Part shown: one piece after another, positions 1 to 20,184 of the stretch | Layout of the letters: the number at the start of each line of letters is the position of its first letter | How positions within the stretch are numbered: position 1 is the first letter of the stretch | From: an uncultured Pseudomonadota bacterium | Lineage (GTDB): Bacteria > Pseudomonadota > Gammaproteobacteria > Methylococcales > Methylomonadaceae | Assembly: GCA_903876445.1 (NCBI GenBank) | Contig: CAIQZX010000118.1 | Location: 1 to 44,712 of the forward strand | Reading direction: 5' to 3' | DNA length: 44,712 nucleotides | Notes under the pieces: generated by a model | Database searches by the model: none | Told to the model about the DNA's origin: nothing | The model's input: the letters and a program-made list of their open reading frames with translations, nothing else | Position numbers and translations under genes: made by a program

Positions 1-889
1 CTGATGAGGGATTACCTGCACCACCTAATGAGGGATTACCTGCACCACCTGATGGCGGATTACCTGCACCGCCTGATGGCGGATTACCTACACCGCCCGA
101 TGAGGGATTACCTACACCGCCCGATGAGGGATTACCTGCACCACCTGATGAGGGATTACCTGCACCACCTGATGAGGGATTACCCGCACCGCCTGATGGC
201 GGATTACCTGCACCACCTGATGAGGGATTACCTGCACCGCCCGATGAGGGATTACCTGCACCGCCCGATGAGGGATTACCTGCACCACCTGATGAGGGAT
301 TACCTGCACCGCCTGATGGTGGATTACCCGCACCGCCCGATGGTGGATTACCTGCACCGCCTGATGAGGGATTACCTGCACCACCTAATGAGGGATTACC
401 TGCACCACCTGATGAGGGATTACCTGCACCACCTGATGAGGGATTACCTGCACCGCCTGATGAGGAATTACCTGCACCGCCTGATGGCGGATTATCCGTA
501 CCGCCTGATGGCGGATTACCTGCACCGCCTGATGGCGGATTACCTGTGCCGCCCGATGAGGGATTACCTGCACCACCTGATGAGGGATTACCTGCACCGC
601 CTGATGGCGGATTACCTGCACCGCCTGATGGCGGATTACCTGCACCGCCTGATGAGGGATTACTTGCACCGCCTGATGGTGGGTTACCTGCACCGCCTGA
701 TGAGGGATTACCTGCACCACCTGATGGCGGATTACCTGCACCGCCCGATGGCGGATTACCTGCACCGCCTGATGGTGGGTTACCTGCACCGCCTGATGAG
801 GGATTACCTGCACCGCCTGATGGCGGATTACCTGCACCGCCCGATGAGGGATTACCCGCACCGCCTGTTAGATTAGCTGTTTCAGTCAT
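1..889 (-). CDS. Gly-rich octapeptide-repeat protein, 3' end outside window
   Basis: The frame opens on the minus strand with an ATG at 889-887, seven bases after a perfect AAGGAG ribosome binding site (plus-strand 897-902). It reads MTETANLT and then 36 uninterrupted octapeptides of consensus GGAGNP[S/P]S down to the window edge, with no stop, so the protein continues beyond position 1. Position 7 alternates between Ser and Pro; rare variants are T for A, D for G before N, and L or V. There is no signal peptide and no hydrophobic segment in the visible part, so it is probably disordered or an extended Gly/Pro/Ser-rich segment. I do not recognise a family. Three other frames across the repeat are also open, because a 24-bp unit keeps frames open, but only this one has a ribosome binding site and start. 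Function is unknown; a linker or surface role is only a guess. Confidence 0.75.
   Translation of the reverse strand, partial: MTETANLTGGAGNPSSGGAGNPPSGGAGNPSSGGAGNPPSGGAGNPPSGGAGNPPSGGAGNPSSGGAGNPPSGGASNPSSGGAGNPPSGGAGNPPSGGAGNPSSGGAGNPSSGGTGNPPSGGAGNPPSGGTDNPPSGGAGNSSSGGAGNPSSGGAGNPSSGGAGNPSLGGAGNPSSGGAGNPPSGGAGNPPSGGAGNPSSGGAGNPSSGGAGNPSSGGAGNPSSGGAGNPPSGGAGNPSSGGAGNPSSGGAGNPSSGGVGNPSSGGVGNPPSGGAGNPPSGGAGNPSLGGAGNPSS
2..865 (-). repeat. 36 tandem copies of a 24-bp unit
   Basis: A direct array of 24-bp units occupies exactly 864 bases with no length change. The plus-strand unit is close to GATGAGGGATTACC followed by TGCACCACCT. Variation is mostly at the GAG/GCG/GTG triplet and at the CAC/CGC triplet. 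The array lies inside the minus-strand Gly-rich gene and encodes one octapeptide per unit. It may extend beyond the left edge, so the total copy number is unknown. Confidence 0.95.
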
Positions 890-17649: not shown

Positions 17650-18105
17650 ATGCACAAAATTCAATTAAAAATTTTAGACTCACGTTTAGGCGACACAATT
17701 CCATTACCCGAATACGCAACGATAGGTTCGGCAGGTTTAGATTTACGCGCCTGTTTAGACGATGCGATTATTTTGCAACCCAGCGAAACGGTTTTAATTC
17801 CAACGGGTTTGGCGATTCACATTGGCGATAATTCACTTGCCGCCGTTCTATTGCCCCGTTCCGGCTTAGGACACAAACATGGCATTGTTTTGGGCAATTT
17901 AGTCGGGCTTATCGATTCGGATTATCAAGGACAAGTTTTCGTTTCCTGTTGGAATCGTGGGAACGAACCTTTTACGATAAACGTCGGCGAACGCATCGCA
18001 CAAATGGTTTTTGTTCCAGTGGTTCAAGTGGCGTTTGAACAGGTTACAGATTTCGATGAAAGTCATCGTGGCGAAGGCGGTTTTGGTCACACAGGTCGTG
18101 ATTAA
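17650..18105 (+). CDS. dut: dUTP diphosphatase
   Basis: Dut hydrolyses dUTP to dUMP, supplying the dTMP precursor and keeping uracil out of DNA. The 151-residue trimeric-type enzyme begins [15 protein letters not shown] at ATG 17650; the longer upstream frame is read through the nadA terminator and is not credible. The five conserved motifs are visible: [12 protein letters not shown]-like ([11 protein letters not shown]), [37 protein letters not shown] and the C-terminal [10 protein letters not shown] arm. Confidence 0.97.
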
Positions 18106-18106
18106 C

Positions 18107-18140
18107 AAAAAAAGCCCGTTTTAAAAACGGGCTTTTTTTT
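18107..18140. terminator. Terminator shared by dut and the convergent LamG gene
   Basis: An A-run, GCCCGTTTT, AAAACGGGC and a T8 run make a hairpin flanked by A and T tracts, so it can work in both directions between two converging genes. The stem sequence is nearly the same as that of the terminator on the other side of dut. Confidence 0.85.
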
Positions 18141-18164
18141 GAAGCGTTACGCCTGATTACGCAA

Positions 18165-19142
18165 TTACTGCAAAACGCCAGTAATGCTAATATTTACGCT
18201 TTCGCCTTTTTTCGCTTTCAAACCCGCCGCCGTACAATTCCATTCCGTCGCGCCATCTGCTAACGCAATCTTTTTGCTCACGCCTGTTTTCAAGTTTTTA
18301 CAAACCGCGCTGTATTTTTGCACGCCATTTACAGTGCCGCTAAGTTGTCCCATGTTGTACAAAGATTTAACTTCGGTTTCTGAAAGGGCGCGGTTGTAGA
18401 TGCGGGTTTCATCAATTTGCCCTGCAAAACGAGATGACTCACCATCTCCGTTGTACCATTGGTGGTAGGAAAGATATTGTGGCGAATCTTTAAAATTAAC
18501 AAAGGTACTGGACACGCTTTCAATGAGTACATTATCAAAATAAAAATTAGTTTTTGAAGGTGATGCAGTAATAGCGACTGTGTGCCAATTACCATCTGAA
18601 AGACTTACAATCGATTTACTTTGACCTTGAACCCAAAGATCGCCATTACTTGAATTTATCCATAATGCAAAAAAATGATTAAGATCTGAATTGTCACCTA
18701 TTGACCAAATAGCACCAGTTGGATCGTAATTATTCGCAGCTTCCCATTTTACACGAGCATGAAAACTCACCTCTGAACCAGTGTAATTAGGCAGAACAAC
18801 CGAATCTTTTTTATCAAAATAACCACTATTACTGGTATTTAAAAAACGTAATGCTTTGCTTTTAACACCATCAACACATTGAGGATTGCCGTTAATCGTG
18901 CCATCGTTACCATTGCCGCTATTATCTTTTGCGGTGCAATCATCAAACGAATAATTTGCCACTAAACCTGTGTTTAAATCCGCATGAGCAGGTGAAAAAA
19001 CGAACAAAGAACCCAAGAAAAGGCTTGACAGTGCAAGTTTAGAATTTACGATTTTTTGACTGACTGACTGACTGACTGAGCCACTTGTTTTGTAATAAAC
19101 ATTTTTGAATCTCCTAAAAAGGAATGAAAAGTTTAGCGGCAT
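18165..19142 (-). CDS. Secreted LamG-domain protein, likely phase-variable
   Basis: The open frame gives 325 residues. After a SVSQSVSQ stretch encoded by a tetranucleotide repeat comes a signal peptide (SKLALSSLFLGSLFVF, cleavage after AHA54). Then comes a LamG/concanavalin-like jellyroll at about 58-270 (GLVANYSFDDCTAKDNSGNGNDG, DGNWHTVAITASPSKTNFYFDN, GQIDETRIYNRALSETEV). A short C-terminal domain with two cysteines (VCKNLKTG, WNCTAAG) follows. The in-frame ATG at 19142 has no ribosome binding site. The ATG with AGGAG (19102) is in another frame and stops after 18 codons. Such domains often bind glycans or act in adhesion; the ligand is unknown. Confidence 0.8.
   Translation of the reverse strand: MPLNFSFLFRRFKNVYYKTSGSVSQSVSQKIVNSKLALSSLFLGSLFVFSPAHADLNTGLVANYSFDDCTAKDNSGNGNDGTINGNPQCVDGVKSKALRFLNTSNSGYFDKKDSVVLPNYTGSEVSFHARVKWEAANNYDPTGAIWSIGDNSDLNHFFALWINSSNGDLWVQGQSKSIVSLSDGNWHTVAITASPSKTNFYFDNVLIESVSSTFVNFKDSPQYLSYHQWYNGDGESSRFAGQIDETRIYNRALSETEVKSLYNMGQLSGTVNGVQKYSAVCKNLKTGVSKKIALADGATEWNCTAAGLKAKKGESVNISITGVLQ
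19057..19079 (-). repeat. (TGAC)n tetranucleotide tract in the LamG gene 5' end
   Basis: Five perfect TGAC units plus TGA form a 23-base tract (plus strand), reading as GTCA units in the gene. With the present number, translation from the ATG at 19102 (AGGAG eight bases upstream) ends at TAA 19046-19048. One more unit, or two fewer, would put that start in frame with the signal peptide and LamG domain. Confidence 0.85.
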
Positions 19143-19275
19143 TCAACCGAAGCCACTAGCATGGATTGTACAACAAAGCGTAGATTGATAAACCATCTAA
19201 ATCCAATATTGGTAATAAATCGCGGTTCAAATTAGAATAGTCACCATTCACGCCTTTAAATTCAACGGATTTTTA

Positions 19276-20184
19276 ATGACAGACTATAAATTAACCCATT
19301 TAAAACAACTCGAAGCCGAAAGTATTCACATTATTCGTGAAGTCGCGGCGGAGTTTGAAAAACCTGTAATGTTGTATTCAATTGGTAAAGATTCGGCGGT
19401 TATGCTGCATTTGACCATGAAAGCATTTTATCCTGCTCCGCCGCCATTTCCAATGATGCACGTTGACACAACGTGGAAATTCAAAGAAATGATTACCTTC
19501 CGTGATGAAATGGTGAAAAAACTCGGTTTAGATTTAATCGTTCACACCAATCAAGACGGCGTGGACATGAACATCAGCCCGTTTGTTCACGGCAGTAAAA
19601 AACACACCGACGTAATGAAAACGGACGGTTTGAAACAAGCGTTGAACAAATATCAATTTGATGCGGCATTTGGTGGCGCGAGACGTGATGAAGAAAAATC
19701 GCGTGCAAAAGAACGGGTTTATTCGTTCCGTGATAAAAATCACCGTTGGGATCCGAAAAATCAACGTCCTGAATTGTGGAATATCTACAACGGTAAAATC
19801 GACAAAGGCGAAAGTATTCGCGTGTTTCCGTTATCGAATTGGACGGAGTTGGATATTTGGCAATATATTCATTTAGAACAAATTCCGATTGTGCCGTTGT
19901 ATTTCGCCAAAGAGCGTCCTGTTGTCGAACGCGACGGAATGCTGATTATGGTGGACGATGACCGTATGCCAATTGGCGAACATGAAAAAGTCGAAATGAA
20001 AAAAGTGCGTTTTCGCACGTTGGGCTGTTATCCATTAACGGGTGCGGTCGAATCGGAAGCGACGACGTTACCTGAAATTATTCAAGAAATGCTTTTGACC
20101 ACGACTTCTGAACGCCAAGGTCGCTTAATTGACCATGACCAAGCGGGTTCGATGGAACAGAAAAAACGCGAAGGCTACTTCTAA
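19276..20184 (+). CDS. cysD: Sulfate adenylyltransferase subunit 2
   Basis: CysD is the catalytic subunit of ATP sulfurylase, which makes adenylylsulfate from sulfate and ATP. The 302-residue protein has the PP-loop ATP pyrophosphatase motif [13 protein letters not shown] (from residue 34), then [32 protein letters not shown] and [11 protein letters not shown]. The C-terminal [13 protein letters not shown] and [10 protein letters not shown]...[10 protein letters not shown] match the family. It is followed after 35 bases by cysN, the GTPase subunit that drives the reaction. Confidence 0.98.

What the first reader, a model, noticed from the sequence alone, without database searches (positions are those of the whole stretch)
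19038..19142. Tetranucleotide switch in a secreted LamG protein
A (TGAC)5 tract lies between the best start site and the signal peptide. The ATG at 19102 has AGGAG eight bases upstream but stops after 18 codons in this copy-number state. One extra unit, or two fewer, puts it in frame with the signal peptide and LamG domain. The only in-frame ATG now (19142) has no ribosome binding site. Slippage at tetranucleotide repeats is a known cause of on/off switching of surface proteins, for example in Haemophilus. The sequenced state would be OFF or weak.
Basis: partly seen in the sequence, partly recalled or inferred. Interest (0 to 1): 0.72.

Follow-up and report, generated by a model that had tools for sequence, protein, structure and literature searches.

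The report
Repeat-tract on/off switches in a methanotroph
A lake methane-eating bacterium carries a four-letter DNA stutter at the start of a secreted protein gene that probably flips the gene on and off, and its relatives carry similar stutters in front of many other surface and signalling genes.

Summary
Observation confirmed. (TGAC)5.75 lies at 19057-19079, between an AGGAG-preceded ATG (19102) and the signal-peptide/LamG frame of a minus-strand gene; that ATG stops after 18 codons. It is far beyond chance.
Relatives support a switch. The closest one (G010:C96, 88%) has 24.5 units at the same place, also out of frame; a second copy (G010:C37) has 20.5 and is in frame. LamG codons are conserved between two copies that both read OFF (dN/dS 0.12), so OFF looks like a state, not decay.
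Beyond the finding: in this pmoA-bearing Methylococcales genus, GTCA or CAAG tracts occur at 26 places in 8 of 18 genomes. Four are TonB-receptor 5' ends; seventeen are intergenic cassettes with tract, spacer and terminator, 15 of the 16 readable with a leader start codon. One or two leader frames stop 26-64 nt before the hairpin; the rest reach or cross it. That is the published design of the Streptococcus gallolyticus pil1 phase-variable attenuator (PMC3894217). The window gene is the classic coding type.
No reads or expression data were available: switching is inferred.

The parts
18165..19142 (-). LamG gene, frame open from ATG 19142 (325 aa as sequenced)
   Evidence: dN/dS 0.119 against G010:C96 over 291 codons
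19057..19079 (-). tetranucleotide tract, (GTCA) class on the coding strand, 5.75 units
19100..19102 (-). probable true start codon ATG, 18 codons then stop in this copy-number state
   Evidence: conserved with AGGAG in three tract-bearing copies
19111..19115 (-). AGGAG ribosome binding site, 8 nt before the ATG
   Evidence: sequence; AGGAG also in L055, L056 and the decayed copy L071
19140..19142 (-). in-frame ATG without ribosome binding site; absent from the in-frame copy L056
18981..19055 (-). signal peptide directly after the tract (KIVNSKLALSSLFLGSLFVFSPAHA); cleavage after AHA judged by eye
   Evidence: no signal-peptide program was run
18366..18788 (-). Laminin_G_3 (concanavalin-like) domain
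19165..19170 (-). TACAAT, possible -10 box, 85 nt before the tract; no good -35
   Evidence: also in L055, 93 nt before its tract; the consensus scan does not list it
18107..18140 (-). hairpin with T-run after the gene, probable terminator
   Evidence: sequence, read by eye; the scan listed no terminator in 18000-19400, so it missed or rejected this one

Best explanation
The tract is a translational contingency switch. Slipped-strand mispairing during replication changes the number of GTCA units. Ribosomes start at the AGGAG-ATG (19102) and read the tract as an SVSQ-type repeat. In one of three copy-number classes they enter the signal-peptide/LamG frame and a secreted LamG protein is made with a long n-region; in the other two they stop just after the tract. 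The sequenced state is OFF. The locus is one of a genus-wide set: coding tracts in LamG and TonB-receptor genes, and leader-ORF/terminator cassettes that act as phase-variable attenuators. Shown: tract, start signals, frame states, unit-number differences between genomes and copies, conservation of the protein. Inferred: slippage in a living population, expression, surface location, benefit.
For: Tract beyond chance. Same tract at the same place in two relatives with 24.5 and 20.5 units, one in frame. AGGAG-ATG conserved in three of three tract-bearing copies; two of two differences between L055 and L056 after the ATG (tract junction aside) are synonymous in its frame. dN/dS 0.119 between two OFF copies. 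TGAC tracts of 19 nt or more in 6 of 18 g1 genomes and 0 of 43 others; CAAG x5 in 6 of 18 g1 and 0 of 19 others, with 0 hits in all 37 for the reversed unit. Coding-type tracts: 2 of 7 genes in frame with the upstream ATG, near the third expected of a free-running switch. H. influenzae phase-variable loci use the same units AGTC and CAAG (PMC2651432, passages).
Against: No two assemblies of one species were available, so variation is between species and copies only. G010:C96 is not in the same neighbourhood: homology ends at the gene's own block and cysD is not beside it within the 3 kb held, so it is the closest relative, not a proven positional orthologue. G010:C37 is a mosaic with a diverged middle, and its dN/dS against the other two is 0.67 and 0.78, so the low ratio rests on one pair. 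Two of three copies, OFF for the AGGAG-ATG, are open from an upstream ATG, so weak expression in that state is possible. 5.75 units is short for fast slippage (general knowledge). In three of four TonB-receptor genes an ATG follows the tract directly. The tract's own reversed-pattern control is uninformative, because reversed TGAC is its complement.
Confidence: 0.78

Rival explanations
1. The 19142 ATG is also used, so the gene has two productive classes (two N-termini, weak and strong) and one silent class: a rheostat rather than an on/off switch.
For: The frame from the upstream ATG is open through the tract in the window and in G010:C96; the ATG lies in a block kept in the window, L055 and the decayed copy L071.
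Against: No ribosome binding site seen; the ATG is absent from the in-frame copy L056; two differences between L055 and L056 are synonymous only in the AGGAG-ATG frame.
Confidence: 0.2
2. The tract is a neutral repeat or the gene is decaying, with no switching function.
For: Own genome holds a decayed copy of the gene without tract (G000:C161, L071); the sequenced state is OFF.
Against: dN/dS 0.119 for window against G010:C96. The tracts were found only in genus g1 among the genomes searched and sit at gene starts or in leader cassettes. Two different units, GTCA and CAAG, occupy the same place in homologous cassettes.
Confidence: 0.08
3. For the intergenic cassettes: they are small-RNA genes with promoter and terminator, not attenuators.
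For: TACAAT or TATAAT 38-44 nt before the tract in 10 of 15 cassettes with upstream sequence, and an intrinsic terminator. Four cassette loci submitted to Rfam gave 0 matches, so no known RNA family helps decide.
Against: A start codon lies within 11 nt of the tract in 15 of 16 with upstream sequence, with AGGA or AAGG in the 16 nt before it in 12 of the 14 where those are visible; the three-frame stop pattern recurs.
Confidence: 0.2

Closest known systems
Haemophilus influenzae tetranucleotide contingency loci (AGTC- and CAAG-tract genes; PMC2651432, passages seen)
   Same: Same repeat units; tract just after the start codon; unit number sets the reading frame
   Different: Here the tract lies before the signal peptide of a LamG protein; organism is probably a free-living methane oxidiser; within-species variation not shown
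Streptococcus gallolyticus pil1/pil3 phase-variable attenuator (PMC3894217; abstract, model section and discussion read)
   Same: The intergenic cassettes of the genus (not the window gene): repeat tract in a leader ORF, premature terminator downstream, one frame stopping well before the hairpin and others in or beyond it
   Different: Tetranucleotide GTCA or CAAG instead of GCAGA; many homologous cassettes dispersed before unrelated genes; Methylococcales; no experiment
Phase-variable TonB-dependent receptors (H. influenzae hgp with CCAA tracts, recalled; HI1369 with AACAACC, passage)
   Same: Repeat tract at the 5' end of TonB-receptor genes
   Different: (CAAG)n; tract before the signal peptide; found in relatives, not in the window

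Membership tests
SSR contingency locus, translational type (window gene) | Pure tandem repeat with unit not a multiple of three, in the 5' coding region | tested here: met
   5.75 x TGAC after the AGGAG-ATG
SSR contingency locus, translational type (window gene) | Unit number differs between relatives and puts the gene in or out of frame | tested here: met
   5.75 OFF, 24.5 OFF, 20.5 ON; between species and copies only
SSR contingency locus, translational type (window gene) | Gene intact and under selection apart from the tract | tested here: met
   dN/dS 0.119 over 291 codons against G010:C96; 0.67 against the mosaic copy G010:C37
SSR contingency locus, translational type (window gene) | Reversible change of unit number within a clone | not testable with these tools
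   no reads and no second strain held
SSR contingency locus, translational type (window gene) | Surface or secreted product | tested here: inconclusive
   signal peptide judged by eye; LamG domain by Pfam
pil1-type phase-variable attenuator (window gene) | Intrinsic terminator between tract and gene | tested here: not met
   no hairpin with T-run found within 170 nt after the tract; scan lists none, but that scan also missed the hairpin after the gene
pil1-type phase-variable attenuator (17 cassettes: 16 in relatives, 1 in own C182) | Leader ORF containing the tract | tested here: met
   ATG (13) or TTG (2) within 11 nt of the tract in 15 of 16 with upstream sequence; G011:C17 lacks one there; G011:C27 begins inside its tract
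pil1-type phase-variable attenuator (17 cassettes: 16 in relatives, 1 in own C182) | Terminator hairpin downstream, before the regulated gene | tested here: met
   hairpin of -11.0 to -21.2 kcal/mol before a T-run in 16 of 17; own C182 only -5.7, below my cut-off. C182 was one of the seven sequences that built model R1, so its match to R1 is by construction
pil1-type phase-variable attenuator (17 cassettes: 16 in relatives, 1 in own C182) | Frame decides whether the leader stops before or at/after the hairpin | tested here: met
   16 of 16 distinct spacers have at least one early and one late frame; null mean 12.1, p about 0.01; spacers are homologous, so not independent
pil1-type phase-variable attenuator (17 cassettes: 16 in relatives, 1 in own C182) | Transcription of the gene depends on leader translation | not testable with these tools
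   needs reporter or RNA data

The most novel reading that the evidence does not exclude
A genus of lake methane oxidisers uses a portable phase-variable attenuator cassette (-10 box, ribosome site, leader ORF, GTCA or CAAG tract, spacer of about 49 or 75 nt, terminator) copied before many surface, RTX, kinase, GGDEF and response-regulator genes. Together with coding tracts in LamG and TonB-receptor genes this gives a combinatorial bet-hedging repertoire, perhaps against phages and grazers. That the repeat unit is exchangeable while the cassette stays the same would show that frame switching, not the sequence of the tract, is what selection keeps.
Probability: 0.6. Interest if true: 0.78.

Novelty: new variant of a known kind. 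Interest (0 to 1): 0.64.

Why it matters
Repeat-driven phase variation is known to me mainly from host-adapted pathogens; here it appears, in two mechanistic forms, across a genus of probable environmental methane oxidisers. For the attenuator form my searches (most listed papers not opened) showed only the S. gallolyticus precedent. It predicts cell-to-cell differences in surface make-up within one lake population, which long reads or deep metagenomes can test directly, and offers a natural series of cassettes for studying how ribosome position controls termination.

Tried and rejected
Considered and rejected: that the window gene itself is an attenuator (no terminator between tract and gene); chance origin of the tract; pseudogene. 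I first took G010:C96 for a positional orthologue; one search showed no shared neighbourhood, so I call it the closest relative. Post-tract similarity between LamG genes and cassettes (AAAATT ... GTCAA at equal spacing) suggests common origin but was not tested further. Four cassette loci submitted to Rfam gave 0 matches.

Rows dropped. Of the 26 matches of model R1, nine are not among the 17 cassettes: tRNA-gene neighbours or plain terminators (L093, L094, L095, L096, L097, L103), a tract-less degenerate copy (L104), a reverse-strand match on an already counted hairpin (L111), and a copy with 2.5 units (L109). Hence 5 of the 12 genomes with an R1 match (G002, G003, G008, G014, G015) have no cassette, and the model rings on unrelated terminators. 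Seven of the 17 cassettes built the model (L009, L057/L124, L059/L123, L060/L121, L061/L122, L063, L069/L126). In one search, 8 of 151 family genomes matched at E 1e-4; of these G015 is a tRNA neighbour and G158 (another genus) shows only about two CAAG units.

Unit controls: GACA x5 in 0 of 18 g1 genomes; CAAT x5 in 3 of 18, and its reversed unit in G010, so other tetranucleotide tracts exist; two of the CAAT tracts also precede a hairpin (by eye), not followed up. Papers: searches (methanotroph with phase variation/variable) found 0; (Methylococcales) found one unrelated paper (listing and start of abstract only); two searches were listings, of which I opened only PMC2651432.

Full report
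What is there. On the minus strand the window holds a 325-residue open frame with a Laminin_G_3 domain (residues 119-259, E 2e-13). Between a well-formed start (AGGAG at 19115..19111, ATG at 19102..19100) and the signal peptide lies a pure tract of 23 bases, TGAC x 5.75 on the plus strand. From this ATG the frame stops after 18 codons; the signal-peptide frame is displaced by 2 mod 3. The ATG at 19142, in the signal-peptide frame, lacks a visible ribosome site. The tract is not chance: 300 approximate dinucleotide shuffles of the window never gave a 4-periodic run above 16 nt.

Organism. The window is contig 118 of a 2.8 Mb, 223-contig genome with one PmoA/AmoA match (PF02461, E 1.3e-129). A genome of the same family, G024, has a contig of the same length and match (30143 bases) as JAPLRW010000283.1, titled Methylococcales bacterium. 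I therefore take the organism as a methane oxidiser of that order (inference). G010 corresponds by the lengths of two contigs to CAISXF01, MAG LJ-5-9m_bin-0986. The 13 named loci are 2 from that MAG, 3 from Methylococcales and 8 from other phyla with weaker or partial matches. That the source is a lake is inferred from such titles (one relative is from LacPavin; 'LJ' with a depth is read as a lake sample).

Relatives of the gene. Of 61 genomes searched with the protein, 14 had a match. The closest, G010:C96, is 88% identical and has 24.5 units at the same place; another copy, G010:C37 (55%), has 20.5. From the AGGAG-ATG the window copy and C96 are out of frame and C37 is in frame. The AGGAG-ATG is kept in all three; the 19142-type ATG is not in C37. 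Apart from the tract junction, the two differences between C96 and C37 after the ATG are synonymous in the AGGAG-ATG frame and replace residues in the other (read). Window against C96 has dN/dS 0.119 over 291 codons: the protein is conserved though both assembled copies are OFF. Against C37 the ratios are 0.667 and 0.776; C37 is a mosaic whose ends are about 88% identical in DNA and whose middle is not matched. The neighbourhoods of window and C96 differ, so C96 is not a proven positional orthologue. The own genome also holds a decayed, tract-less copy (C161).

The tract is one of many. TGAC tracts of 19 bases or more occur in 6 of 18 genomes of genus g1 and in 0 of 43 others. CAAG x5 occurs in 6 of 18 g1 genomes and 0 of 19 others; the reversed unit in 0 of 37. 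Together 8 of 18 g1 genomes have one or both. I fetched stretches around every place in these lists, and one around a short decayed copy (27 stretches), and found 26 tracts of at least 14 nt: 3 LamG genes with the tract before the signal peptide, 4 TonB-receptor genes (Pfam Plug domain in each) with (CAAG)n at the 5' end, 17 intergenic cassettes in seven genomes, and 2 cut off by contig ends. From the upstream ATG, 2 of the 7 coding-type genes are in frame.

The cassettes. A covariance model of the post-tract region from seven copies (R1) gave 26 matches in 12 of 37 genomes, all in g1; 17 of the 26 are tract-bearing cassettes, in 7 genomes, and 7 of these 17 had built the model. The other nine are listed under Tried and rejected. 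The anatomy is: TACAAT or TATAAT 38-44 nt before the tract in 10 of 15 cassettes with upstream sequence, without good -35 boxes; a start codon within 11 nt of the tract in 15 of 16 (13 ATG, 2 TTG); the tract (GTCA or CAAG, 6.25 to 27.75 units); a spacer of 48-51 or 73-76 nt; and a hairpin before a T-run, folded at -11.0 to -21.2 kcal/mol in 16 of 17. In own C182 the hairpin is weak (-5.7) and I set its position by hand at 75 nt. Pfam was run on the first long ORF after 15 of the 17: six RTX proteins (two of them also with RCC1 repeats), a further RCC1 protein, a LamG protein, an Lcl_C protein, a histidine kinase, a GGDEF protein and a response regulator; three had no match.

How the cassettes would work. 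In 16 of 16 distinct spacers at least one frame stops 26-64 nt before the hairpin and at least one other stops within 10 nt of the hairpin base or beyond; 14 of 16 have a frame crossing the U-run. With shuffled spacers, 30 or more late frames came in 0.15% of trials, the early-plus-late pattern in all 16 in 1.05%, and 14 or more crossing in 3.1%; the spacers are homologous, so these are not independent tests. In the assembled states 8 leaders stop early and 7 late, of 15 with a called start. Two pairs differ in state: G012:C193 (13 units, late) and G004:C87 (18 units, early) with identical spacers; G010:C40 (6.25, late) and G011:C18 (12.25, early) with near-identical flanks and the same first residues of the next gene. 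Danne et al. 2014 (PMC3894217; abstract, model and discussion read) showed this for pil1: a leader ending 39 bp upstream gives low, leaders ending in or beyond the hairpin give high transcription.

Judgement. The wider set is the more interesting part: two mechanisms and two exchangeable units in an environmental genus. Searches for methanotroph or Methylococcales with phase variation and for other repeat-driven attenuators listed no earlier report beyond S. gallolyticus; most listed papers were not opened, and only open-licence papers are held. What is missing is any proof of unit-number change within one population and any expression data.

Noticed in passing
window 1-876: About 36 copies of a 24-base repeat giving an ORF of octapeptides of the type MRDYLHRL, at the contig start.
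   Followed up: no
G000:C182 (L009:10066-10113): Second GTCA tract of the own genome, 12 units, in a cassette with a weak hairpin before a 313-aa protein and a 1054-aa protein with RTX-like repeats (repeats by eye).
   Followed up: partly
L116, L118, L119, L120: TonB-dependent receptor genes with (CAAG)12.5-25.75 at the 5' end; in three of four an ATG follows the tract directly, so leader and gene may be translationally coupled.
   Followed up: partly
L138, L139: A third tract class, CAAT of 10.25 and 13.5 units, also followed by a hairpin with T-run, in G001 and G003.
   Followed up: no
L122, L062, L117, L127: 4 of 26 tracts lie within 40 nt of a contig end, as if assemblies break at them; could reflect mixed unit numbers or simply repeats.
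   Followed up: no
L130 (G010:C58) leader: The start region and the spacer element with GTCAA can pair (TGACGCA with TGCGTCA) in the folded leader; possible extra control of the start.
   Followed up: no
L121 and L124: Two cassettes with near-identical flanks and the same next gene start, but a diverged spacer between tract and terminator, as if cassette interiors are exchanged.
   Followed up: no
L056 (G010:C37): The in-frame LamG copy is a mosaic: both ends about 88% identical to the window gene in DNA, the middle of the LamG part diverged, as if the domain was swapped.
   Followed up: no
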